Positions 10,036 to 21,205 of a stretch of 64,000 bases of DNA are shown here, one piece after another. This DNA is from Sphingomonas jeddahensis (lineage in GTDB: Bacteria > Pseudomonadota > Alphaproteobacteria > Sphingomonadales > Sphingomonadaceae), in assembly GCF_001981525.1 (NCBI RefSeq), contig NZ_MPSB01000002.1:124001-188000 (forward strand), written 5' to 3'. Within the stretch, counting starts at the first letter, position 1, and the number at the start of each line of letters is the position of its first letter. The translations under genes and the position numbers were made by a program. Under the pieces are notes generated by a model. It did not search any database and was not told the DNA's origin. It saw only the letters and a program-made list of their open reading frames with translations.

Positions 10036-10725
10036 ATGATCGATCCGCCGCAAGCTAGCATCGCCATTTATGATCTAGATCGGACAATCACGAGGCTGCC
10101 GACTTGGACACCGTTTCTAGTGTTTGCAGCTCGGCGTATGCATCCGGCGCGACTTTGGTTGTTGCCGGCGATTGGGGTTGCTGTGGCACGCCGGATTGCG
10201 GGTCTGATGCATCGCGACCGGCTGAAAGAGGCGATGCATCGTTTGTTGCTAGGTCCGGAAGTGCCGGCGGCGAGGCTGTGCGAAGTCTCAGATGAGTTCG
10301 CTGACTGGATCGTCAGCCGTCATCTTCGCCCGGGCGCCGTCGCGCAGCTTGCGGCCGATCGCGCCGAAGGTCGGCGGATCGTCATCGCTACGGCCGCGCA
10401 CCGCTTCTACGCCGAGCCGATCGCCAGGCGACTGGGAGTGGCAGACTTAATAGCCACTGAAGCGAACCACAATCGGGCGGGAGCCCTCCTGCCGGAGCTC
10501 GACGGGCCGAACTGCTATGGCGCGGTGAAGCAGGCGATGATCGCCGCCTGGTTCGCGAGTACGAAACTGGATCGGGCGAACACACACACCCGCTTCTATT
10601 CGGATCATGTCAGCGACCGACCGACCTTCGACTGGGTCGATGAGCCGGTCGCCGTGAACCCGCACGCCAAGCTGCGCACGCTGGCGGCAGCGCGGGGGTG
10701 GCAGGTGGTGGACTGGGGCCGCTAA
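10036..10725 (+). CDS. HAD-IB family phosphatase
   Basis: This is a 229-residue haloacid-dehalogenase-superfamily hydrolase of the SerB/PSPase-like IB group. Motif I is DLDRT (Asp13, Asp15), motif II is ATAAH near residue 118, and the C-terminal FYSDHVSDRPTFDWVDEPVAVNPH carries motifs III and IV and a fixed ending seen in lipid- and capsule-associated members. A stretch of hydrophobic residues at 25-50 could let it associate with the membrane. Its position at the head of an envelope gene cluster suggests it removes phosphate from a lipid or glycerol-phosphate intermediate; that is inference. It overlaps the end of the convergent next gene by four bases. Confidence 0.85.
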   Translation: MIDPPQASIAIYDLDRTITRLPTWTPFLVFAARRMHPARLWLLPAIGVAVARRIAGLMHRDRLKEAMHRLLLGPEVPAARLCEVSDEFADWIVSRHLRPGAVAQLAADRAEGRRIVIATAAHRFYAEPIARRLGVADLIATEANHNRAGALLPELDGPNCYGAVKQAMIAAWFASTKLDRANTHTRFYSDHVSDRPTFDWVDEPVAVNPHAKLRTLAAARGWQVVDWGR

Positions 10726-11870
10726 GCCGCGCCGAACCGCTCGACGATGGCGGCGGCGGCGCGGCGCGAGGCGGGCTGGTCGGTGCGCGAGAAGGTGGCG
10801 GCGAAGGCAGCCTCCTGTGCGGCGCGGTGACGGTCGGGGTCGGTGACGGCGCCATCGAGTGCGGCGGGCAATGCCGCCACCTCGTCGATCACCTCGCCGA
10901 GGCGCCAATGCGCGAAATCGGGATCGGCCGCCCAGGCGACGCCGGCCGCGTTGAGGAAGATCGCCGGGCGCGGCCGCGCAATCCACTCGTAGATCTGGCT
11001 GCTCGCATCGCCGAGATAGATGTCGGCGGCGCGCGTGTAGGTCATGTCCACCGACGCCTCGCTGCCCATGTCGACGTGGATATGGGGCAGGTCTCGGTAT
11101 TGGCGTTCGATGTCGCGCCGCCAGTGGACGATGCGATGCTCGACCGAGGCGTGGAGGCGGCGCTTGGCCAGCATCACGTGCGGCGCGACGATTAGGTTGA
11201 CGCGTGATTGCTGCGCGAACCAGGCGAGCACGTCCTTGCCCATCGTGTACCAGGACGACAGTTTCGGATCGAAATGCGGGTTGTAGAGGACGGTGGGGCG
11301 ATCGTTCGCGAACAGCCGCGTCGGGGGCGCTTCATCGATCGTGTCGAATTTCGGATAGCCAATGATCGCGTGGTTTTCCAGCTTGATGAGGCCGGCGGCG
11401 AGCATCCGATCGCGCACCTTGGCGCCGGAGAGCAGGACGAGATCGAAACCACGCATCACCGGCCGGAAGCCGACCGAGCGGTCGCCAGCGCCGTGCGGGA
11501 TCCAGACGAACCTAGGGCCGGTAAGGCCGAAGCGGTCGCGCAGCAGGAGCGAGGTCGTCTCGGGCACCACGAGCACGTCGAGCGCGGCGAAGGCGGGCAG
11601 ATTCTCGCGCAGAGTGGCGACGCGGCGAAAGGGCGCGACGAAGCGCAGGGTCCGATCGAGCGCCTCGGCGAGACGGCCGATCCTGAGCCGGACGAAATGG
11701 ACCTGCTCGGCGGCGGGGCCGAGCAAGGCGCGGACATGCGCCTCCTGCTCGGGCGAGGAGGTCAGCACCACCGCCTGGACACCAGGAAAGCGCACGATCT
11801 CCGCTATGACGGGCGCGGTGTGGCGGATCTGGTGCAGCGCGTCATGATTGAAGAGGAAGCCGACCTTCAT
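10722..11870 (-). CDS. CDP-glycerol glycerophosphotransferase-like protein (1)
   Basis: The 382-residue protein has the two-domain GT-B-like fold of TagF/TagB enzymes, which add glycerol- or ribitol-phosphate units to a lipid-linked or saccharide acceptor. Family features are WIPHGAGDRSVGF near 140, TVLYNPHFDPKLSSWY near 200, NLIVAPHV near 230, and the nucleotide-site region DMGSEASVDMTYTRAADIYLGDASSQIYEW at 265-295. There is no signal peptide, so it acts at the cytoplasmic membrane face. It follows its paralogue with an ATGA overlap, so the two are translated together. Confidence 0.8.
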   Translation of the reverse strand: MKVGFLFNHDALHQIRHTAPVIAEIVRFPGVQAVVLTSSPEQEAHVRALLGPAAEQVHFVRLRIGRLAEALDRTLRFVAPFRRVATLRENLPAFAALDVLVVPETTSLLLRDRFGLTGPRFVWIPHGAGDRSVGFRPVMRGFDLVLLSGAKVRDRMLAAGLIKLENHAIIGYPKFDTIDEAPPTRLFANDRPTVLYNPHFDPKLSSWYTMGKDVLAWFAQQSRVNLIVAPHVMLAKRRLHASVEHRIVHWRRDIERQYRDLPHIHVDMGSEASVDMTYTRAADIYLGDASSQIYEWIARPRPAIFLNAAGVAWAADPDFAHWRLGEVIDEVAALPAALDGAVTDPDRHRAAQEAAFAATFSRTDQPASRRAAAAIVERFGAA

Positions 11871-12994
11871 GCCCGCGCCTCCTTGGTGAGGAAGGCGATC
11901 ACGGCCTCGACGGCACGGGATGCCGCGCCGGGGGTAGTGTCACCGAGGCTTGCCGCCGCCATCGCCGCCTGCCGTTCGCGATAGAGCGCGTGGCGCGCCG
12001 GCGCGGCACGGATCACGTCCATCAGGTCGGCGGGATCGTCCACCACATCGCCCAAGTGCCAATGCGCGAAGCTGGGATCGTCGCGCCAGTCGATCCCGTG
12101 CGCGTTGAGGAAGACGCAGGGGCGCGGGACGGTGAGGAATTCATACACCTGGCTGCTGACGTCGCCGACATAGATGTCCGCCGCGGCGGCATAGCTCATG
12201 TCGACCGAGCGATCGGAGCCTGGATCGACCAGCACGTTGCCGGTGCTGCGCGCGCGCCAGCGCACCCGCAGCGCCTCGCTGCGGCGGCGGAACAGCTTCA
12301 CATGCGGGGCGACGATCAGGTTCATCGACCGGTCCGCAGCGAAGCCGGCGAGCATCGGTTCGATGAAGCGGTGCCACGATGTCAGCTTCGGTTCCTTGTG
12401 CGCATTGTACAGCACGGTCGCGCGCGGCGCGTCGAAGGGCAGCGCGGTGGTGCGCGCGATCCGATCCGCCGTGTCGAGTTTCACCGACCCGGTCAGCGCA
12501 TAGCCGCCGTCGCGGATCATGCCGGCATCCAGCATGCGCGCCGCCGTCTTCTCCCCGGCGAGCAGCACCAGATCGAAGATGGCGATCTCGGGTACGAAGC
12601 CGCGCGCTCGATCGCCGACGCCGTGCGGATAATAGATCAGCTTGGGCCTTGTGATGCCCAGGCGGCGAAGCGCCGCCGCCGTGTCTTCGACGGCGATGAT
12701 CGCGTCATAGCCGTTCAGCTCCGCGATGTTGTCGCGCATCACCAGCGTCTTGAACATGCCCAGGCGTCCCAACCCGCGCTGCAAGGCGCGGGTCAGCGGC
12801 GATTTGTGCAACGCGCGCGACTCGATCGCTGGGCCGCCCCAGGCCTGCGCGATACGTGCAAGATGATGCGGCGTTTCGGGATCGTTGTAGTAATCGACCA
12901 CTGTCCAGCCGGTGCGGCGCGCCAGTTCGTGCGCGATCCCTGCGCCGTGGTAGCACTGATAGGCTTCTGCGATATAAAGGAAGGCGATCCGCAT
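11867..12994 (-). CDS. CDP-glycerol glycerophosphotransferase-like protein (2)
   Basis: This 375-residue paralogue of the next gene shares YYPHGVGDRARGF, ATVLYNAHKEPKLTSWH, NLIVAPHVKLF and DPGSDRSVDMSYAAAADIYVGDVSSQVYEF. The start at 12994 gives MRIAFLYIAEAYQCYHGAG, which matches the beginning of the paralogue; the frame upstream is antisense to the flippase. A pair of different transferases often means a primase and a polymerase, or alternation of two units, but the donor cannot be told from sequence. It is divergent from the flippase with only 40 bases between them. Confidence 0.8.
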   Translation of the reverse strand: MRIAFLYIAEAYQCYHGAGIAHELARRTGWTVVDYYNDPETPHHLARIAQAWGGPAIESRALHKSPLTRALQRGLGRLGMFKTLVMRDNIAELNGYDAIIAVEDTAAALRRLGITRPKLIYYPHGVGDRARGFVPEIAIFDLVLLAGEKTAARMLDAGMIRDGGYALTGSVKLDTADRIARTTALPFDAPRATVLYNAHKEPKLTSWHRFIEPMLAGFAADRSMNLIVAPHVKLFRRRSEALRVRWRARSTGNVLVDPGSDRSVDMSYAAAADIYVGDVSSQVYEFLTVPRPCVFLNAHGIDWRDDPSFAHWHLGDVVDDPADLMDVIRAAPARHALYRERQAAMAAASLGDTTPGAASRAVEAVIAFLTKEARA

Positions 12995-13034
12995 CCGCCT
13001 GCCCCATAGCGCGGCCGCGATTGGAAGATAGCCG

Positions 13035-14342
13035 TTGACGCCCCCCACAGACGCAATCACCCCATTTCGCCGCGCGCTGCGCAATGTCGGCTGGCTGCTG
13101 ACCGGCAAGGGCCTCGCCGCGGTGCTGAGCATCGTCTATCTGGCGCTCGCCACCCGCTCACTCGGCGTGCAGCAGTTCGGCCTGTTCACGCTGATCCTCA
13201 GCACCGCGCAGGCGGTATCGACGCTGGTCGCCTCGGACACGTGGCAGATCGTGGTGCGGTTCGGCATGCCGCATCGCGAGGCGGGACGGCAGGATTCGCT
13301 GGGGCGGCTGATCTGTTTCTGCCTGGCGCTGGACGTAGGCGGGGCGCTGATCGGCATTGGGATCGCGGGCGTGGCGCTGTGGCTGATGCAGGGGCATTTC
13401 GGCTGGTCGGCGACGCTGGTGCGTGAAGCCTTTGCTTTTTCGGTCGTGCTGCTGCTGTCGGTGCGATCGACCGCGGTCGGCGTGCTTCGCCTGCACGATC
13501 GCTTCGCGCTGGGCGCCGGCGCGGATTCGGTGACGTCGATCGTGCGGTTCACCGGCGCGGTTATCGCGGTGTGGCAGCAGGCGACGCTGACCGGTTTCCT
13601 GCTCGCCTGGGCGGCGGCCGAGGTGCTGACCGCCTTGGGTTACTGGATCGCGGCGCTGCGGGTGGCGCCGGGCACGATGCGGGGCTGGCGTGGCGCAATG
13701 GCGGCGTCGCGGGAGAATGCCGGTATCTGGCAGTTCACCTTCGTCACCAATCTGAACGCAACGCTGAACGCCGCCAGCCGGCAGTTCGTCGTCGTGCTGG
13801 TCGGCTTGCTGACCGGGGCGGCGGCGGCGGGCAATTACCGGCTGGCCTATCAGCTTAGCCAGTCGCTGGTGCGGCTGGCGGACATGTTCGCGCGCGGTGT
13901 CTTTCCCGAAGTGACCCGCGCGCATGCCGCGGCGCGGATGGGTGAGTTGCGCACGCTGATGCGACAGTCCGCGCGGCTGGCGGTCGGCGTCGGGCTGGCG
14001 ACGTGCCTGCTCGTGCCGCTGCTGGGCTGGCCGGCGCTCCATCTGATCGCGGGCGAGGCGTATCTGGGTGCCTATCCGATCCTGATCCTGCTCGGCCTTG
14101 CCGCGGGGCTCGACATCATGGCGGTGGGGTTCGAGCCGGTGCTGCTGGGCACGGGCCATGCCACGCGAGCGTTGCGCATCCGCGTGGCGGCGGTGGTGGT
14201 GCTGTTCGGCGGGGTGGTCCTGCTGATGCCGAGTTTCGGGGTAATGGGCGCCGGCGCAGCGTCGCTGATCGCCTCCGCCGTGGCGCTGATCGCGTTGGTG
14301 CGCAGTGCTTATGTGGTGACGCGGTTGGGCGAGCGAGGGTGA
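13035..14342 (+). CDS. Lipopolysaccharide/polysaccharide flippase, Wzx (MATE/MOP) type
   Basis: This 435-residue membrane protein has about 12 hydrophobic helices and the start typical of Wzx-like flippases: FRRALRNVGWLLTGKGLAAV, then YLALATRSLGVQQFGLF. Such proteins turn lipid-linked saccharides from the inner to the outer leaflet of the cytoplasmic membrane. The start is the TTG at 13035, chosen because it is the only initiator ahead of the conserved N-terminus. Its neighbours, two glycerophosphotransferase-like genes, suggest it moves a phosphate-containing lipid-linked chain. Confidence 0.85.
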   Translation: MTPPTDAITPFRRALRNVGWLLTGKGLAAVLSIVYLALATRSLGVQQFGLFTLILSTAQAVSTLVASDTWQIVVRFGMPHREAGRQDSLGRLICFCLALDVGGALIGIGIAGVALWLMQGHFGWSATLVREAFAFSVVLLLSVRSTAVGVLRLHDRFALGAGADSVTSIVRFTGAVIAVWQQATLTGFLLAWAAAEVLTALGYWIAALRVAPGTMRGWRGAMAASRENAGIWQFTFVTNLNATLNAASRQFVVVLVGLLTGAAAAGNYRLAYQLSQSLVRLADMFARGVFPEVTRAHAAARMGELRTLMRQSARLAVGVGLATCLLVPLLGWPALHLIAGEAYLGAYPILILLGLAAGLDIMAVGFEPVLLGTGHATRALRIRVAAVVVLFGGVVLLMPSFGVMGAGAASLIASAVALIALVRSAYVVTRLGERG

Positions 14343-14586: not shown

Positions 14587-15633
14587 GTGACAATTCATGT
14601 TCAAATGGGCGCCGCTCTCCATCCCAAGATGGGCGTGGGCGCGGATCTGCTCCACGGCCTGCGCCCGTCACGAGTGGCGCCGGTGCCCAGCCCGTCGTTC
14701 CGTTTCGCTACGGGCGCGGCACGGGTCGGGATCATCAGCAATCCGCGCAGCCGCCGCAACTGGACGGTCGATCTGGAGCTCAAGATCGGCCCGGGCGTGC
14801 TGGCCGCGGCGCCGACCACCAATGCGCAGTTGGTCGAGACGCTGCAGTCTTTTGCCAAGCACCGGCTGGAACTGCTGGTGATCGATGGCGGCGACGGCAC
14901 CGTGCGCGACGTGTTGAGCGCCGCGGCCGCGATTTATGGCGACAACCTGCCGCCGCTGGCGCTGCTGCCGTCGGGCAAGACCAATGCGCTGGCCTTAGAC
15001 CTCGGCATTCCGCTGGGCTGGTCGCTGGAGGATGCCGTGACCGCGCACAGCACCGGCCGGGTCCAGACGCGCGCGCCGATCGACGTTCGCCGCGACGACG
15101 GGGATGGTCCGCTGCGCGGATTCATCTTCGGGGCCGGCGGTTTCGTGCTGGCGACCGAACTGGCGCAGGGAACGCACCGCTTCGGCGCAATCGACGGGCT
15201 TGCGGTGGGATTATCGCTGGTCGGCGCGATCGCGCAAACGTGCTTTGGCGGATCAGCCAATCGCTGGCGCGCGGGTGAGCGGGTCGAGATTTTCAACCAC
15301 GCCACGGGCGAAACCAGCGTTCGCGAGCTATACCTGCTGCTCGGCTCCACGCTGCAGCGGCTGCCGCTGGGCATCAAGCCGCTGGGCACGACGAGCAGCG
15401 GCCTGGACGTGCTGGCGGTCGATTCGCCGCCGCGGATGCTGCCGGTAGCCGCCGCCGCAGTCGTGATGGGCAAGGAAGGTTCATGGCTGGAGCGGATGGG
15501 CTATCACCATGGCCACGACATCCCGCCGGTGCGGCTGACGCTGAAACGCGGCTTCATCCTTGACGGCGAGCTGTTCCCTGGCGGCACGATCGACGTACGC
15601 ACGGGCGCGCCAATCCGGTTCGTGACGCCGTGA
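14587..15633 (+). CDS. Diacylglycerol kinase catalytic-domain protein (DagK/YegS type)
   Basis: The 348-residue protein belongs to the lipid/sphingoid kinase family. It has the nucleotide-binding signature VIDGGDGTVRDVL (GGDGT at 101-105), LPSGKTNALALDLGI near 125, and a C-terminal half with FIFGAGGFVLA and a DGELF motif near the end. The usual SNPxSG start is varied (ISNPRSRRN at 50-58). It should phosphorylate diacylglycerol or a related lipid to the phosphatidate. It starts at a GTG and overlaps the next gene by four bases, so it is translationally coupled to the Tam41-like gene. Confidence 0.82.
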   Translation: MTIHVQMGAALHPKMGVGADLLHGLRPSRVAPVPSPSFRFATGAARVGIISNPRSRRNWTVDLELKIGPGVLAAAPTTNAQLVETLQSFAKHRLELLVIDGGDGTVRDVLSAAAAIYGDNLPPLALLPSGKTNALALDLGIPLGWSLEDAVTAHSTGRVQTRAPIDVRRDDGDGPLRGFIFGAGGFVLATELAQGTHRFGAIDGLAVGLSLVGAIAQTCFGGSANRWRAGERVEIFNHATGETSVRELYLLLGSTLQRLPLGIKPLGTTSSGLDVLAVDSPPRMLPVAAAAVVMGKEGSWLERMGYHHGHDIPPVRLTLKRGFILDGELFPGGTIDVRTGAPIRFVTP

Positions 15634-16535
15634 CCGCACTAACGAGTTTCATCGCTGGCGAGCTGAATCGCCCGGTGCCGCCTGAGGTGGTGCATGCCGG
15701 GCGCGTGATAGCCGGGCGGCTCGGCGGGGTGGCGGTGCTGTTCTACGGCTCCGTGCTGCGCACCGGAGATCTTGACGGCTTGCTCGATTTCTACGTGCTG
15801 CGCGACGGCAGCCAGGCAGGCGGCGCGATCGGCCGGCTGCTGTGGCCGGACGTCAGCTATCATGAGGTCAACATCGGCGGCGAGCTGATCCGCGCCAAGG
15901 TGGCTTCCATGCCGCTGGAAACGTTTCAGCGCGCGGCGAGCGGCACGACGCTCGACACGACGATCTGGGCGCGCTTCGTCCAGCCTGCGGCGTTGGTGTG
16001 GGCCAAGGGCGCCGTGGCCCGGCAGCGGACAATCGACGCGGTGGCCACCGCCGCCGTGACGGCGGCGAGCTTTGCCGCGCTGCATGGTCCCGAGCAGGGC
16101 GATGCCAATGCCTTCTGGCGCGCCTTGTTCCGCGCAACCTATGCCGCAGAGCTGCGCGTCGAGGCGCCGGGACGCGAGGACCAGATCCTGAGCTACGATC
16201 GGGCCCGCTATGACACGCTGCTGCCGCTGGCCTGGCATGCGGCCGGCGTGGACTTCGCCATGGGTGAGAACACGCTCTCTCCGCGGCTTTCTGACGAGCG
16301 GGTGATTGAACTCGCCAATGCTTGGTTGACCCTGGAGAATGCCGGCAAGCGGCTCAACCTCGCGCGGTTGCTGAAGGCAGCATTCACCTTCAACGGCGCA
16401 ACGCGCTATGCGGCCTGGAAGATCGAGCGGCACACGGGCCTGCGCGTGCCGGTGACGCCGTTTCGGGAACGACACCCGATCATGGCCGCGCCGGGCGTGC
16501 TGTGGCAATTGTGGCGGCACATGGTGCTGCGGTGA
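15630..16535 (+). CDS. Uncharacterised protein resembling Tam41 phosphatidate cytidylyltransferases
   Basis: I recognise no standard bacterial family from memory, but the 301-residue layout resembles Tam41, the mitochondrial CDP-DAG synthase. It has a nucleotidyltransferase-like FYGS at 38-41 followed by LLDFYVL at 51-57, then GGELIRAKVASMP at 83-95, comparable to the Tam41 segment around 'IKYGVVS', and TTIWARFVQPAALVWAKG at 110-127, comparable to 'LYIAGRLQKPV'. Tam41 converts phosphatidate and CTP to CDP-diacylglycerol. It lies directly between a lipid kinase that would make phosphatidate and a nucleotidyltransferase, which fits. This is a motif-level comparison made by eye; profile searches would decide. 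Confidence 0.5.
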   Translation: MTALTSFIAGELNRPVPPEVVHAGRVIAGRLGGVAVLFYGSVLRTGDLDGLLDFYVLRDGSQAGGAIGRLLWPDVSYHEVNIGGELIRAKVASMPLETFQRAASGTTLDTTIWARFVQPAALVWAKGAVARQRTIDAVATAAVTAASFAALHGPEQGDANAFWRALFRATYAAELRVEAPGREDQILSYDRARYDTLLPLAWHAAGVDFAMGENTLSPRLSDERVIELANAWLTLENAGKRLNLARLLKAAFTFNGATRYAAWKIERHTGLRVPVTPFRERHPIMAAPGVLWQLWRHMVLR

Positions 16536-17290
16536 TGCCGAATGCGTTGGTGCTGGCGGGATCGCGCGGCGGCACCGATCCGGTCGCGGATTATGCCGGG
16601 GTGTCCGACAAGGCGCTGATTCCGCTGGGCGGGCAGACGATGCTCGCGCGGGTGATCGGGGCATTGCACGAGGCCGGGATCGGGCGGGTAGCGGTGGCCG
16701 CCAATGCACCCGCGGTGGTGGCTGAGGCGAGGCAGCATGGGGCGCAACCCCTCGCTGCTGCCGCAGGGCCGAGCGCCAGCACCGCCGACGCGCTGGCGAT
16801 GCTTGGCGCGCCGCTGCTCGTCACCACTGCGGATCATGCCTTGTTACGCGCGGATTGGGTGCGCGACTTCGTGGCGCGGGTGCCGACGGGCGCGGACGTG
16901 GCGGTGCTGCTGGCACGGTGCGAGGCGATCGAGCGAGCGGCACCGGGTTCGCGGCGCACCTATCTTCGCTTTGCCGATGGCAATTGGTCCGGCTGCAACC
17001 TTTTCCTGTTGGCGACGCCGAAGGCCGAAGCCGCGGTGCGGCTGTGGCAATCGGTGGAGCGCGATCGCAAGCGGCCGTGGCGGATTGTGGGGCGGTTGGG
17101 GCCGGGGCTGCTGCTGCGCTATCTGTTCGGTCGCCTGTCGCTGGCGGAGGCGATCGCTAGTCTGGGCCGGCGGGTGGGCGTGACCGCGGTAGTAATCGAG
17201 GCAAGCGACGGGCTGGCTGCGGTGGACGTCGACAAGCCGTCTGACCTCGATTTCGTGCGGGAACGGGCAGAATTGGACGCTTTGGGGTGA
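16535..17290 (+). CDS. MobA-like NTP transferase domain protein
   Basis: This 251-residue cytoplasmic nucleotidyltransferase has the Rossmann-like start NALVLAGSRGG, a conserved Lys in VSDKALIPLGGQTM, LLVTTADHALL with a metal-binding Asp, and a C-terminal VDVDKPSDLDFV, the ending common in MobA-, GlmU- and IspD-related enzymes. The substrate is unknown; making a CDP- or NDP-activated alcohol or sugar for the same lipid pathway is a reasonable guess from position. The start ATG overlaps the preceding stop (TGATG), so the last three genes of the cluster form one coupled operon. Confidence 0.75.
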   Translation: MPNALVLAGSRGGTDPVADYAGVSDKALIPLGGQTMLARVIGALHEAGIGRVAVAANAPAVVAEARQHGAQPLAAAAGPSASTADALAMLGAPLLVTTADHALLRADWVRDFVARVPTGADVAVLLARCEAIERAAPGSRRTYLRFADGNWSGCNLFLLATPKAEAAVRLWQSVERDRKRPWRIVGRLGPGLLLRYLFGRLSLAEAIASLGRRVGVTAVVIEASDGLAAVDVDKPSDLDFVRERAELDALG

Positions 17291-17340: not shown

Positions 17341-17910
17341 ATGTCGATGATTACCGAGCGGGCCGAGGCCTTGCATCACACGGCGGGACGCGAAAGCGGC
17401 AAACGCGTCGCCGCAACGCCGATCGCCACCCTCCCCTTGCAGCTGACGATCAACGGCGAAGAGCGCGCGCTCCAGGTCGAGCCGTGGACCACGCTGCTCG
17501 ACCTGCTCCGCGAGAAGCTCGACCTCACCGGATCGAAAAAGGGATGCGACCATGGTCAGTGCGGCGCGTGTACCGTCCTGATCGATGGGAAGCGGATCAA
17601 TTCCTGCTTGAAGCTGGCGGTGACGCTGGACGGTGCCGAGATCACCACGATCGAGGGGCTGGGGCAGCCCGGCAACCTTCATCAGCTGCAGGCCGCATTC
17701 ATCGAGCATGACGCCTTCCAGTGCGGCTATTGCACGCCGGGGCAGATCTGCTCCGCGCAGGGGCTGATCAACGAAGGCCATGCGCACAGCCGCGCGGAGG
17801 TGCGCGAGCAGATGAGCGGCAATTTGTGCCGCTGCGGCGCCTACACCAACATCGCCGACGCAGTGATCGAGGTGCTCGATCGTCGGGCGAACGGGGAGAA
17901 GCAGGAATGA
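17341..17910 (+). CDS. paoA: Aldehyde oxidoreductase, 2Fe-2S subunit (PaoA type)
   Basis: This is the small subunit of a xanthine-oxidase-family molybdoenzyme that oxidises aromatic aldehydes. It is 189 residues long. The plant-ferredoxin-like cluster uses Cys69, 74, 77 and 89; the second cluster uses Cys128, 131, 163 and 165 (CGYC and CRC). It begins with a polar stretch without a recognisable Tat signal, unlike E. coli PaoA. It overlaps the next gene by four bases (ATGA). Confidence 0.92.
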   Translation: MSMITERAEALHHTAGRESGKRVAATPIATLPLQLTINGEERALQVEPWTTLLDLLREKLDLTGSKKGCDHGQCGACTVLIDGKRINSCLKLAVTLDGAEITTIEGLGQPGNLHQLQAAFIEHDAFQCGYCTPGQICSAQGLINEGHAHSRAEVREQMSGNLCRCGAYTNIADAVIEVLDRRANGEKQE

Positions 17911-18920
17911 TCCGCTTCGATTATTCGCGACCGAGTGGGGTTAACGAGGCGGTTCAGGCGGGTGCCGGCGCGCAAGTCGCCTATCTCGCCGGGGGCACGA
18001 ACCTCGTTGACCTGATGAAGGAGAATGTCGCGCGGCCACTGCACGTCGTCGACATCAACCGACTACCGCTCGATGCGATCGAAGAGATGGATGGCGGCGG
18101 GCTGCGGCTCGGCGCGCTCGTGACCAATGCCGATACCGCTTACGACGAGCGGGTGCAGCGGCGCTATCCGTTGCTGTCCTCGGCGATCCTGGCGGGTGCC
18201 TCGCCGCAGCTGCGCAATGCCGCGACCAACGGCGGCAACCTGAACCAGCGGACGCGCTGCTATTATTTCTACGACGTCGATACGCCGTGCAACAAGCGCA
18301 ATCCCGGCGAGGGCTGCGGGGCGATCGGCGGGGTGAACCGGATCCATGCGATCCTGGGGACCAGCGATCATTGCATCGCCACGCACCCGTCCGACATGTG
18401 CGTGGCGCTGGCGGCGCTGAATGCCGACATCCACGTGACTGGGCCGGCGGGCGAGCGGGTGATCCCGATCGGGGAGTATCACCGCCTGCCCGGCGACGAG
18501 CCGTGGCGCGACAACACGCTGAAAACCGGCGAGCTCGTCACAGCGATCGACCTTCCGGCGGAGGATTTCGCCAGCCACTACACCTATCTGAAGCTGCGCG
18601 ACAGACTATCCTATGCTTTCGCGCTCGTGTCAGTGGCAGTGGCGATGCGGATTGAGGATGGCGCGATCACCGAGGCGCGGGTGGCGCTGGGCGGGGTGGC
18701 GCACAAGCCGTGGCGCTCGCCGTCGGCGGAGGAGTTGCTGGTCGGCGAAGCGCCGGGCGACGCGATCTTCGCAACGGTCGCCGGCGCGATCCTGGAAGGC
18801 GCGCAGGGCCAGGGCGACAATGACTTCAAGATCGACCTGGCGCGCCGCGCGATCGTCCGCGCGTTGCACCAGGCCGCGAACGGTACGCCGCAATCGCAAA
18901 CCGACAAACGCATCGCCTGA
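17907..18920 (+). CDS. paoB: Aldehyde oxidoreductase, FAD-binding subunit (PaoB type)
   Basis: The 337-residue middle subunit carries FAD through the motif LAGGTNLVDLMKEN near residue 28 and the ATNGGNLNQRTRC stretch near 106. Cys118, 128, 137 and 156 match the extra [4Fe-4S] cluster known from E. coli PaoB and absent from xanthine dehydrogenase FAD subunits. It passes electrons from the 2Fe-2S subunit. The start ATG at 17907 has AGGA before it. Confidence 0.92.
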   Translation: MIRFDYSRPSGVNEAVQAGAGAQVAYLAGGTNLVDLMKENVARPLHVVDINRLPLDAIEEMDGGGLRLGALVTNADTAYDERVQRRYPLLSSAILAGASPQLRNAATNGGNLNQRTRCYYFYDVDTPCNKRNPGEGCGAIGGVNRIHAILGTSDHCIATHPSDMCVALAALNADIHVTGPAGERVIPIGEYHRLPGDEPWRDNTLKTGELVTAIDLPAEDFASHYTYLKLRDRLSYAFALVSVAVAMRIEDGAITEARVALGGVAHKPWRSPSAEELLVGEAPGDAIFATVAGAILEGAQGQGDNDFKIDLARRAIVRALHQAANGTPQSQTDKRIA

Positions 18921-18931
18921 GGAGCCGCTCC

Positions 18932-21205
18932 ATGAACGCACCCGCCAAGGTCGGCATCGGCACGCCGCTGTCCCGCGTCGATGGCACCGAAAAGGTGACC
19001 GGTACGGCGAAGTACGCCGCAGAGTATAACGTGCCTGACCTGCTTTACGGCGTGGCGGTTTCGTCCCGGATTGCGAAAGGGCGGATCACCGCGCTGGACG
19101 AGGAGGCAGCCCGCGCGGTGCCGGGCGTGGTGGATATCGTCAGCCATCGCAACCGGCCCAAGCAGGCCTGGTTAGACCGCAGCTGGAAGGACGAGCTGTC
19201 GATACCCGGCGAGCCGTTCAAGGCTTTCCACGACGAGCAGATCCTGTTCGCCGGACAGCCGATCGCCGTCGTGATCGCCGAGACGTTCGAGGCGGCCCGC
19301 TTTGCCGCCAGCCTGGTGGAGGTGAGCTACACGGAGGAGGCGCACAATATCGATTTCGAAGCGTCGCTCGCGGAGAAGTTCACGCCATCCCATCTGAAGC
19401 GGCGCAACAATTATCATCCGCCCAAGAACCGCGGCAACGCCGACGCTGCGTTCAAGGCCGCCAACCTGACTGTGGAGGGCGAGTATCACCTCGCTACCGA
19501 GCATCACAATCCGATGGAGATGCACGCTTCTACCGTCGAGTGGCACGGTGACGGCAGCATCACCGTTTTTGACAAGATCCAAGGACCGCAGGGCGACCAG
19601 GCCTATCTCGCCAGCGCATTCGGGCTGGGCAAGAAGAACGTGCGCGTGGTCAACAGCTATGTCGGCGGCGCATTCGGCTCCGGCCTGCGGCCGCAATGGC
19701 AGGTGCAGCTTGCGGTGATGGCGGCGATCCACCTCGAACGATCGGTGCGGGTGGTGATGACGCGCGCCCAGATGTTCACGCATGCGCATCGCCCGGAATG
19801 CAGCTATTCGATCAAGCTGGGCGCCGAACACAATGGCAAGCTGAGCGCGATGATCAACAGCGCGACGACCTCTACCTCCCGGTTTGAAAGCAACATGGAG
19901 GATATCGTCGTCTGGGGCATGATGAACTACGATTGCCCCAATGCCAGCGGCGAGTACTTCATCGCGCCTCGGGACACTTACACCTCAGCAGACATGCGCG
20001 CGCCGGGTGCCGCGACGGGCATGACGTTGTTCGAGATCGCCGTCGACGAGATGGCGTACAAGGCCAAGGTCGATCCGCTCGACCTCCGCCTGCTCAACTA
20101 TTCCAACGTGGACGCGATGAACGAAACGCCGTTCACGTCCAAGGCGCTGCGCGAAGCCTATCGCGAAGGGGCCGAACGGTTCGGCTGGGAGAAGCGCACG
20201 CCCCAGCCGCGATCGATGAAGGAAGGGCGCGAGCTGATCGGCTGGGGCGTGGCGACCGGCATGTGGGATGCACAATTTTCCAAGACGGCCGCCCGCGCGG
20301 TGCTGACCGACGATGGCCGCCTGGAGGTAGCGTCGGCCGCATCGGACATCGGCACCGGCACCTATACGGTTATGGTGCAGGTCGCCGCCGACACGCTTGG
20401 CATCACACCCGAGCATATCAGAGCCAAGCTGGGCGACAGCGACCTGCCGACCGCACCGGTGGAGGGCGGCTCCTGGGGCGCAGCATCGACCGGTGCGGCA
20501 GTCCAGCTTGCCTGCCAGTCGGTCGCCAAGCAGTTGCTGAAAGCCGCGGAGAAGATCGAGGGCAAGCCGCTCCATGGCGCCAATTCGATCGACGATCTTG
20601 TCTTCGCCGATGGCGCAATCGCGTTGAAGACCGATCCCTCGCGTATCGTGACGATCACCGACGTGATGAAGGCCGCCGGGCTGGACCGGATCGAGGTGGA
20701 GGAAACCGCCTCCCCTGGGATCAGTGGGATGATCTCGATGATGCGCAAGTCACGCAACACACACAGCGCGATCTTCTGCGAAGTGCGGGTGGACGAAGAG
20801 TTGAACCAAGTGCGGGTGACCCGCGTGGTCAACGCCGTGGCGGCGGGACGGATCATCAACCCCAAGACGGCGCGCAGCCAGATTCTGGGCGGCGTGGTGA
20901 TGGGCATCGGCATGGCGCTGCACGAGGAAACGTTCGGCGATCGGCAGCTCGGGCGGTGGATGAACCACAATTACGCCGAATATCACGTGCCGGCCCACGC
21001 CGACGTCGAGGATATCGAGGTGATCTTCGTCGATGAGCCCGATCCTGAAGTGACCCCGCTGGGCGTGAAGGGGCTTGGTGAGATCGGCATCGTCGGTACT
21101 GCCGCTGCCGTCGCCAATGCCATCTATCACGCCACCGGCAAACGTGTGCGCGCGCTACCGATCACGATCGACAAGCTGCTGGACGCGGAGCCGGACGTGG
21201 CGTGA
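18932..21205 (+). CDS. paoC: Aldehyde oxidoreductase, molybdenum-binding subunit (PaoC type)
   Basis: The 757-residue catalytic subunit binds molybdenum cytosine dinucleotide. Landmarks are the N-terminal SRVDGTEKVTGTAKYA, the pterin-binding VNSYVGGAFGSG region near 245, and the catalytic Glu717 in KGLGEIGIVG, equivalent to Glu692 of E. coli PaoC. It lies 11 bases after paoB. No XdhC-like chaperone (PaoD) or MoaB/MocA gene is nearby, so cofactor insertion depends on a gene elsewhere. The likely role is detoxifying aldehydes. Confidence 0.93.
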   Translation: MNAPAKVGIGTPLSRVDGTEKVTGTAKYAAEYNVPDLLYGVAVSSRIAKGRITALDEEAARAVPGVVDIVSHRNRPKQAWLDRSWKDELSIPGEPFKAFHDEQILFAGQPIAVVIAETFEAARFAASLVEVSYTEEAHNIDFEASLAEKFTPSHLKRRNNYHPPKNRGNADAAFKAANLTVEGEYHLATEHHNPMEMHASTVEWHGDGSITVFDKIQGPQGDQAYLASAFGLGKKNVRVVNSYVGGAFGSGLRPQWQVQLAVMAAIHLERSVRVVMTRAQMFTHAHRPECSYSIKLGAEHNGKLSAMINSATTSTSRFESNMEDIVVWGMMNYDCPNASGEYFIAPRDTYTSADMRAPGAATGMTLFEIAVDEMAYKAKVDPLDLRLLNYSNVDAMNETPFTSKALREAYREGAERFGWEKRTPQPRSMKEGRELIGWGVATGMWDAQFSKTAARAVLTDDGRLEVASAASDIGTGTYTVMVQVAADTLGITPEHIRAKLGDSDLPTAPVEGGSWGAASTGAAVQLACQSVAKQLLKAAEKIEGKPLHGANSIDDLVFADGAIALKTDPSRIVTITDVMKAAGLDRIEVEETASPGISGMISMMRKSRNTHSAIFCEVRVDEELNQVRVTRVVNAVAAGRIINPKTARSQILGGVVMGIGMALHEETFGDRQLGRWMNHNYAEYHVPAHADVEDIEVIFVDEPDPEVTPLGVKGLGEIGIVGTAAAVANAIYHATGKRVRALPITIDKLLDAEPDVA

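What the first reader, a model, noticed from the sequence alone, without database searches (positions are those of the whole stretch)
14587..17290. Lipid operon with a Tam41-like protein
A diacylglycerol-kinase-like gene, a protein with YGS...LLDF, IRAKVAS and a WARFVQPAALVWAK region reminiscent of the mitochondrial CDP-DAG synthase Tam41, and a MobA-like NTP transferase overlap each other by one to four bases. DAG to phosphatidate to CDP-DAG, plus an activated head group, would be a dedicated phospholipid or lipid-anchor pathway separate from CdsA.
Basis: inference. Interest (0 to 1): 0.75.

Follow-up and report, generated by a model that had tools for sequence, protein, structure and literature searches.

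The report
Bacterial phosphosphingolipid operon with Tam41-like enzyme
This operon, from a relative of Sphingomonas, looks like a ceramide kinase followed by a relative of the mitochondrial enzyme Tam41, so it probably activates ceramide, not ordinary glycerolipid, to build a charged sphingolipid, and it makes an unsolved step of that pathway testable.

Summary
The three overlapping genes are real. The Tam41 guess holds up; the proposed substrate probably does not. The middle protein has no Pfam match, but its confident model matches Tam41 far better than any other fold (Z 17.5, 15.5, 15.4; next 7.0). YG and one Asp are invariant in 100 of 100 homologues, the Ser in 99.

Identity and gene order make the pair cpgB-cpgC of the Caulobacter ceramide-phosphoglycerate pathway (cpgC 57% to C. 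segnis). There CpgB is a proven ceramide kinase, and CpgC is needed for CPG by an unidentified mechanism. The third gene is a CC_1153 orthologue (52%), not MobA. Upstream lie a CC_1166-like flippase and two TagF-like, CC_1167-related genes. The genome encodes serine palmitoyltransferase and CdsA.

Best reading: ceramide, ceramide-1-phosphate, CDP-ceramide (inferred), then head group and export. No clear CpgA or CpgD was found, so the head group may differ. A 2024 paper already suggested a CDP-DAG-synthase-like role for CC_1161: a new variant of a known pathway, with stronger evidence for its open step.

The parts
10036..10725 (+). HAD-IB family phosphatase; possible part of the cluster
   Evidence: PF12710 93.7 bits and TIGR01490 111.5 bits, both over cut-off; kept near the cluster in 7 of 80 named loci, L051-L057
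10722..11870 (-). GT1: TagF-like GT-B transferase, CC_1167 relative
   Evidence: 40% to the Caulobacter segnis homologue; no Pfam match; model pLDDT 90.0; TagF first by VIA (Z 24.1) but tied with UDP-GlcNAc 2-epimerases (23.9), and Foldseek ranks other GT-B enzymes first; profile A4 matches TagF-like Cps3D E 0.0011 and TarL 0.04
11867..13132 (-). GT2: second TagF-like transferase; the true start is probably near 12994
   Evidence: 38.5% to the C. segnis homologue, 40.5% to GT1; PF04464 17.2 bits, below cut-off 22.1; most homologues outside the nearest three loci align from residue 44-49
13035..14342 (+). flippase-like membrane protein, CC_1166 relative
   Evidence: PF01943 48.7 bits, cut-off 28.2; 31.6% to the C. 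segnis homologue; found in 40 of 80 named loci
14587..15633 (+). cpgB orthologue, predicted ceramide kinase
   Evidence: PF00781 over cut-off; 42% to C. segnis CpgB; GGDG present, CxxxCxxC absent
15630..16535 (+). cpgC orthologue, Tam41-like nucleotidyltransferase, predicted CTP:ceramide-1-phosphate cytidylyltransferase
   Evidence: 57% to C. segnis CpgC; model pLDDT 91.8 matches Tam41; Y39 G40 D53 K90 W113 R115 E174 R176 in 100 of 100 distinct homologues
16532..17290 (+). MobA-like NTP transferase, CC_1153 orthologue, substrate unknown (ATG at 16535 also possible)
   Evidence: PF12804 over cut-off; 52% to the C. segnis CC_1153 homologue; directly downstream of cpgC in 27 of 80 named loci

Best explanation
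The operon is the head-group part of a phosphosphingolipid pathway. Ceramide is made by serine palmitoyltransferase, CerR and CerS (encoded on another contig). CpgB (14587-15633) phosphorylates it to ceramide-1-phosphate. CpgC (15630-16535), a Tam41-type nucleotidyltransferase, then transfers CMP from CTP to give CDP-ceramide. A head group is attached to this activated lipid by an enzyme not yet identified. The CC_1153-like NTP transferase and the two TagF-like transferases probably add a further phosphate-linked unit, and the flippase and LptF2/LptG2 move the product to the outer membrane. Shown in Caulobacter (published): the kinase activity of CpgB and the genetic need for CpgC and, for CPG2, CC_1153. 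Shown here: orthology, a predicted Tam41 fold and gene linkage. Inferred: CDP-ceramide, the transferase roles, the transport and the head group.
For: Structure: the AlphaFold2 model (pLDDT 91.8, pTM 0.89) has Tam41 chains (three entries) as the first five Foldseek matches, TM 0.50-0.57, and Z 17.5, 15.5 and 15.4 against 7.0 for the next fold. D53 is invariant and the residue two further on is Tyr or His, not acidic (100 of 100); Tam41 is said to keep only one of the three acidic residues of the fold (PMC11646218, passages). The distant homologue L138, beside a kinase homologue, matches PF09139 at E 2.2e-4. Pathway: 57% identity to C. segnis CpgC; kinase-CpgC-SPT order in Caulobacter, with L088 anchored by an exact cpgD primer match; this genome encodes SPT over its NCBIfam cut-off plus CerS, CerR and LptF2/G2 relatives. 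Logic: Caulobacter mutants in CC_1152 (CpgD by gene order) or CC_1153 still make CPG, while CC_1160 (CpgB) and CC_1161 (CpgC) are needed for it (PMC11324152, PMC12275187). So the first head group does not need these two nucleotidyltransferases, which fits activation of the lipid by CpgC.
Against: The window protein has no Pfam match, and PF09139 does not ring in this genome even at E<=10; 1 of 60 close homologues matches it at E 0.21, among other chance-level hits. The structural match leaves about the last 47-69 residues uncovered. No enzyme is known that would join CDP-ceramide to glycerate; the genome has three CDP-alcohol phosphotransferases, none tested. Caulobacter CpgB phosphorylates diacylglycerol in vitro as well (PMC10331486). 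The organism's sphingolipids were not examined, and sphingomonads are best known for sugar-bearing, phosphate-free sphingolipids (PMC6445935, passages). Clear CpgA and CpgD orthologues were not found, so the product need not be CPG2; AasR was not seen beside SPT and not sought elsewhere. At least 18 genomes of the same genus lack the gene. The kinase neighbour was not found in 2 of 80 loci (L077, and L087 on a short contig) and 1 of 27 phylum genomes.
Confidence: 0.68

Rival explanations
1. A second glycerophospholipid route: DAG kinase makes phosphatidate and the Tam41-like enzyme makes CDP-DAG for a special lipid.
For: Caulobacter CpgB also phosphorylates DAG in vitro (PMC10331486); the solved structures matched are CDP-DAG synthases.
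Against: SPT within the flanks in 25 of 80 named loci; deletion of cpgB leaves Caulobacter phosphatidate unchanged and removes ceramide-1-phosphate (PMC10331486); a CdsA-type gene is present.
Confidence: 0.12
2. CpgC joins glycerate or phosphoglycerate to ceramide-1-phosphate directly, the nucleotide serving only to drive or regulate the reaction.
For: Published schemes draw C1P to CPG as one CpgC step of unidentified mechanism (PMC12275187, PMC13228409).
Against: The predicted fold is that of a nucleotidyltransferase whose best match, 7ecd, was solved with CTP-Mg; PMC11324152 (Conclusions) calls direct glycerate attachment energetically not very favourable.
Confidence: 0.12
3. The MobA-like gene belongs with the xanthine-dehydrogenase-type operon that starts about 50 bases downstream and serves its molybdenum cofactor; only the first two genes are lipid genes.
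For: Position, and the PF12804 domain.
Against: MobA model score 21.7 against cut-off 151.85; 52% to the CC_1153 homologue; it lies directly downstream of cpgC in 27 of 80 loci, while the 17341-17910 dehydrogenase gene was found only in the window's own locus among 50, 30 of which have flanks of just 1.5 kb.
Confidence: 0.04

Closest known systems
Caulobacter crescentus ceramide-phosphoglycerate pathway (CpgB/CC_1160, CpgC/CC_1161, CC_1153, CC_1166, CC_1167)
   Same: Orthologues by identity and order of kinase and CpgC; CC_1153, CC_1166 and CC_1167 relatives in the window; SPT, CerS and CerR relatives in the genome.
   Different: Here split from the ceramide genes; no clear CpgA or CpgD in the genome and no CC_1158 relative in the window; two CC_1167-like genes instead of one.
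Tam41/TAMM41 mitochondrial and Firmicutes CDP-DAG synthase (6ig4, 6ig2, 7ecd)
   Same: Predicted fold over residues 1-254; conserved Lys, Trp, Arg-Phe and Pro positions align with 6ig2 in the weak L138 alignment; one acidic residue at the catalytic pair. That Tam41 itself bears a YGS motif is recalled, not from a call.
   Different: 10-13% identity over the structural match; no PF09139 match for the window protein; likely lipid substrate ceramide-1-phosphate.
TagF/TarL polyol-phosphate polymerases (PF04464)
   Same: GT-B fold; profile match to TagF-like Cps3D.
   Different: Below the Pfam cut-off; as close in fold to UDP-GlcNAc 2-epimerases.

Membership tests
Tam41 CDP-DAG synthase (PF09139) | Tam41 fold: NTase domain plus winged-helix region (domains as in PMC7018664, passages) | tested here: met
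   Predicted model matches 7ecd Z 17.5 (222 residues, rmsd 3.1), 6ig4 15.5, 6ig2 15.4; next fold 7.0
Tam41 CDP-DAG synthase (PF09139) | Score over the PF09139 curated cut-off | tested here: not met
   No match for the window protein; distant homologue L138 21 bits against cut-off 24. Neither genome search had a control genome over the cut-off
Tam41 CDP-DAG synthase (PF09139) | Only one of the three NT-fold acidic residues kept (PMC11646218, passages) | tested here: inconclusive
   D53 in 100 of 100 distinct homologues, position 55 Y (98) or H (2), so the second is lost; the third acidic position was not mapped
Tam41 CDP-DAG synthase (PF09139) | CTP-dependent CDP-DAG synthesis from phosphatidate | not testable with these tools
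   Needs an enzyme assay
CpgC (CC_1161) | Orthology: high identity, kinase neighbour, SPT neighbour in Caulobacter | tested here: met
   57% to C. segnis; kinase found in 78 of 80 loci; SPT within the flanks in 25 of 80. In the window's own genome SPT is on another contig
CpgC (CC_1161) | Required for ceramide phosphoglycerate | not testable with these tools
   Needs a deletion and lipid analysis
CpgB ceramide kinase | DAGK_cat domain with GGDG, without the eukaryotic CxxxCxxC | tested here: met
   PF00781 49.8 bits; GGDG present and CxxxCxxC absent; 42% to C. segnis CpgB
CpgB ceramide kinase | Phosphorylates ceramide | not testable with these tools
   Needs an enzyme assay
CC_1153 nucleotidyltransferase | Orthology | tested here: met
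   52% over 246 residues, against 28% over 87 residues to CpgD
MobA molybdenum cofactor guanylyltransferase | Score over the TIGR02665 cut-off | tested here: not met
   21.7 against 151.85
PF04464 TagF-type glycerophosphotransferase (GT1, GT2) | Score over the PF04464 cut-off | tested here: not met
   GT2 17.2 against 22.1; GT1 no match
PF04464 TagF-type glycerophosphotransferase (GT1, GT2) | TagF-like fold | tested here: inconclusive
   GT1 model: TagF first at Z 24.1, tied with 2-epimerases at 23.9

The most novel reading that the evidence does not exclude
CpgC is a CTP:ceramide-1-phosphate cytidylyltransferase, so bacteria build phosphosphingolipids through a sphingolipid liponucleotide, CDP-ceramide, made by kin of mitochondrial Tam41. 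In this Sphingomonas group CpgA and CpgD have been replaced by the CC_1153-like transferase and paired TagF-like enzymes, giving an undescribed phosphate-bearing head group in bacteria best known for sugar-bearing sphingolipids.
Probability: 0.4. Interest if true: 0.75.

Novelty: new variant of a known kind. Interest (0 to 1): 0.52.

Why it matters
How CpgC turns ceramide-1-phosphate into ceramide phosphoglycerate is stated as unidentified in 2025 and 2026 papers (PMC12275187, PMC13228409). A strong Tam41 fold match turns this into a one-tube assay. If right, sphingolipids get a CDP-activated intermediate like glycerolipids do; the term CDP-ceramide returned no paper in the held open-licence library. 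The linkage also argues that CC_1167, set aside in print as probably unrelated (PMC11324152), belongs to the pathway: it has two relatives beside cpgB-cpgC in the window, where no ceramide-synthesis gene was matched, and one lies between a CpgD and a CpgA homologue in L054-L057. And cpgC in 208 of 296 sampled genomes of the window's order suggests that charged phosphosphingolipids are widespread there.

Tried and rejected
Sequence routes to Tam41 were weak. No Pfam or NCBIfam match for the window protein. PF09139 was absent from this genome and found in 1 of 398 phylum genomes, below the cut-off; in the 14 control genomes it rang once, below the cut-off, and not at all, so these searches had no good positive control. 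In A3, 1 of 21 members matched PF09139 at E 1.4e-4; the call does not name it, but it is presumably L138. PDB profile searches with A1, A2 and A3 gave no Tam41; A1 and A3 gave a small nucleotidyltransferase-domain protein at E 0.12 and 0.16. Only phmmer with L138 listed 6ig2, at E 1.6, which alone proves nothing. A profile-profile comparison with a Tam41 alignment was not made, because no Tam41 set was at hand.

Rejected: a MobA role for the third gene (neighbour not conserved). Rejected as CpgD orthologues: the two hits in the genome (29% over 3-234, and a partial one at 35%); the first lies in an apparent inositol-lipid locus. CpgD homologues in L054-L057 are themselves only 34-36% identical to the Caulobacter query, so 'no clear CpgD' is a judgement. 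The TagF reading of GT1/GT2 rests on weak profile scores and a fold tie.

Limits of the counts. Presence counts come from tblastn in fetched loci; 65 of the 80 named loci are longer than 18 kb, so absences in the shorter ones mean little. (CpgA) warned that an empty answer without a known match shows nothing; the same query matched 41 of 80 loci elsewhere. CerS and CerR in Caulobacter are named by position; the CerS GNAT match is below cut-off. Of the 100 homologues, up to 60 came from the close set A2. The one with YGA instead of YGS is L172, which also has no kinase beside it.
Full report
OBSERVATION. The three frames, their 4-base and 1-or-4-base overlaps and the quoted motifs are as described. 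The outer two match DAGK_cat and the MobA-like NTP transferase domain above Pfam cut-offs; the middle one matches nothing at E<=1. Homologues of the middle gene occur in 208 of 296 genomes sampled from the order and in 27 of 398 from the phylum: 14 in the order, 11 elsewhere in the class, 2 outside it. At least 18 genomes of the window's own genus lack it, so it is accessory there.

PATHWAY. In these, tblastn finds a homologue of the kinase in 78 of 80 loci, on the same strand and at most about 200 bases away; the NTP gene in 47, directly downstream in 27; the flippase in 40; the TagF-like gene in 26; and serine palmitoyltransferase in 25. Pieced together from L066 (Caulobacter segnis) and L088 (C. 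vibrioides DSM 9893), the Caulobacter order is CpgD, NTP, CerS, LptG2, LptF2, CC_1158, CpgA, kinase, middle gene, SPT, CerR, AasR, flippase, TagF-like, LptC2, small or unlabelled genes left out. L088 carries an exact match to the cpgD primer of PMC12275187 at the start of that gene. The CC_ numbers are assigned by this order against PMC11324152 (abstract, sections 8, 9 and 13, and passages seen). So the window genes are relatives of cpgB (42% to C. segnis), cpgC (57%), CC_1153 (52%), CC_1166 (32%) and, twice, CC_1167 (38.5-40%).

GENOME CONTEXT. The same genome encodes SPT (NCBIfam equivalog, 829 bits against cut-off 670), CerS, and CerR, LptF2 and LptG2 relatives in one region of contig 5, and one CdsA-type gene on contig 1. 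No CpgA match was found; CpgD only at 29% and a partial 35%. In the 65 loci over 18 kb the window's pattern (NTP, GT and flippase, no CpgA or CpgD) recurs in 7 (L051, L052, L053, L109, L116, L128, L129), while L054-L057 carry CpgD, GT and CpgA homologues side by side. In 18 of 65 none of SPT, CpgA, CpgD, NTP, GT or flippase was found.

TAM41. An AlphaFold2 model from an alignment of 60 sequences is confident (pLDDT 91.8, pTM 0.89). Foldseek's first five PDB matches are all Tam41 chains, TM 0.50-0.57. VIA-align gives 7ecd (Firmicutes Tam41 with CTP-Mg) Z 17.5 over 222 residues, 6ig4 15.5, 6ig2 15.4, then an aminoglycoside nucleotidyltransferase at 7.0. Among 100 distinct homologues Y39, G40, D53, K90, W113, R115, E174 and R176 never vary and S41 varies once. 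A distant homologue (L138), next to a kinase homologue, matches PF09139 at E 2.2e-4, 21 bits against cut-off 24. Membership in PF09139 by its own cut-off is therefore not met; a shared fold and probable common descent are well supported. PMC11646218 (passages) says that Tam41 keeps one of the three acidic residues of the fold; this family has D53 with Tyr or His two residues on, the third position being unmapped.

MECHANISM. CpgB of Caulobacter phosphorylates ceramide, and DAG in vitro, but its loss removes ceramide-1-phosphate and does not change phosphatidate (PMC10331486, part 1 of 4 and section 7). CC_1160 and CC_1161 are needed for CPG; CC_1152, CC_1153 and CC_1159 are needed for CPG2 (PMC11324152; PMC12275187, parts 1 and 2 of 4). 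Because CPG is still made without CC_1152 (CpgD) or CC_1153, activation of the lipid is the simpler account of CpgC. PMC11324152 (Conclusions) already proposed, from an InterPro domain, that CC_1161 might make an NDP-ceramide. Papers of 2025 and 2026 still call the mechanism unidentified (PMC12275187 part 2; PMC13228409 passages). What is added here is the predicted fold, the residue pattern, the direct if weak PF09139 link and the gene linkage. CDP-ceramide itself, the next transferase and the head group remain inferred.

TRANSFERASES. GT1 has a confident GT-B-like model. TagF ranks first by VIA but ties with UDP-GlcNAc 2-epimerases, and Foldseek ranks other GT-B enzymes first. The family profile matches TagF-like Cps3D at E 0.0011. 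With CpgD making CDP-glycerate, a TagF-like enzyme is an obvious candidate user, and CC_1167 shows cofitness with spt (0.57, PMC11324152) although set aside there as probably unrelated.

LITERATURE LIMITS. Searches: in an open-licence PMC library. 'CDP-ceramide' returned no paper; none of the 10 listed (of 17) papers held both Tam41 and Caulobacter. PMC7018664, PMC11646218, PMC6445935 and PMC13228409 were seen as passages only. Jiao 2019, Kimura 2022 and the first Caulobacter CPG paper (Zik et al., author name as cited in PMC11324152) were not read, only seen cited.

Noticed in passing
L145:6503-9323 (G000 contig 5, about 132.5-135.3 kb): A CpgD-like NTP transferase, a myo-inositol-1-phosphate synthase and, on the other strand, a CDP-alcohol phosphatidyltransferase sit together: an apparent inositol-lipid locus in the same genome.
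   Followed up: partly
window 17341-21205: Xanthine-dehydrogenase-type genes (named by reading the sequence, no family search made) start about 50 bases after the NTP gene; the first of them was found in only the window's own locus among 50 loci.
   Followed up: partly
L031, L032, L033, L035, L038, L045: In other families of the order a more divergent cpgB-cpgC pair (cpgC 35-41% to the window) sits beside LptF/LptG-type and SPT-type genes, in most also DUF2141 and AasR-type genes: a second subtype.
   Followed up: partly
window 10036-10725: HAD-IB phosphatase kept near the cluster in 7 of 80 named loci; it could act on a phosphorylated head group.
   Followed up: no
L136:13396-15318: A CHASE3 sensor histidine kinase with receiver domain lies between the SPT and LptF2-like genes of this genome.
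   Followed up: no
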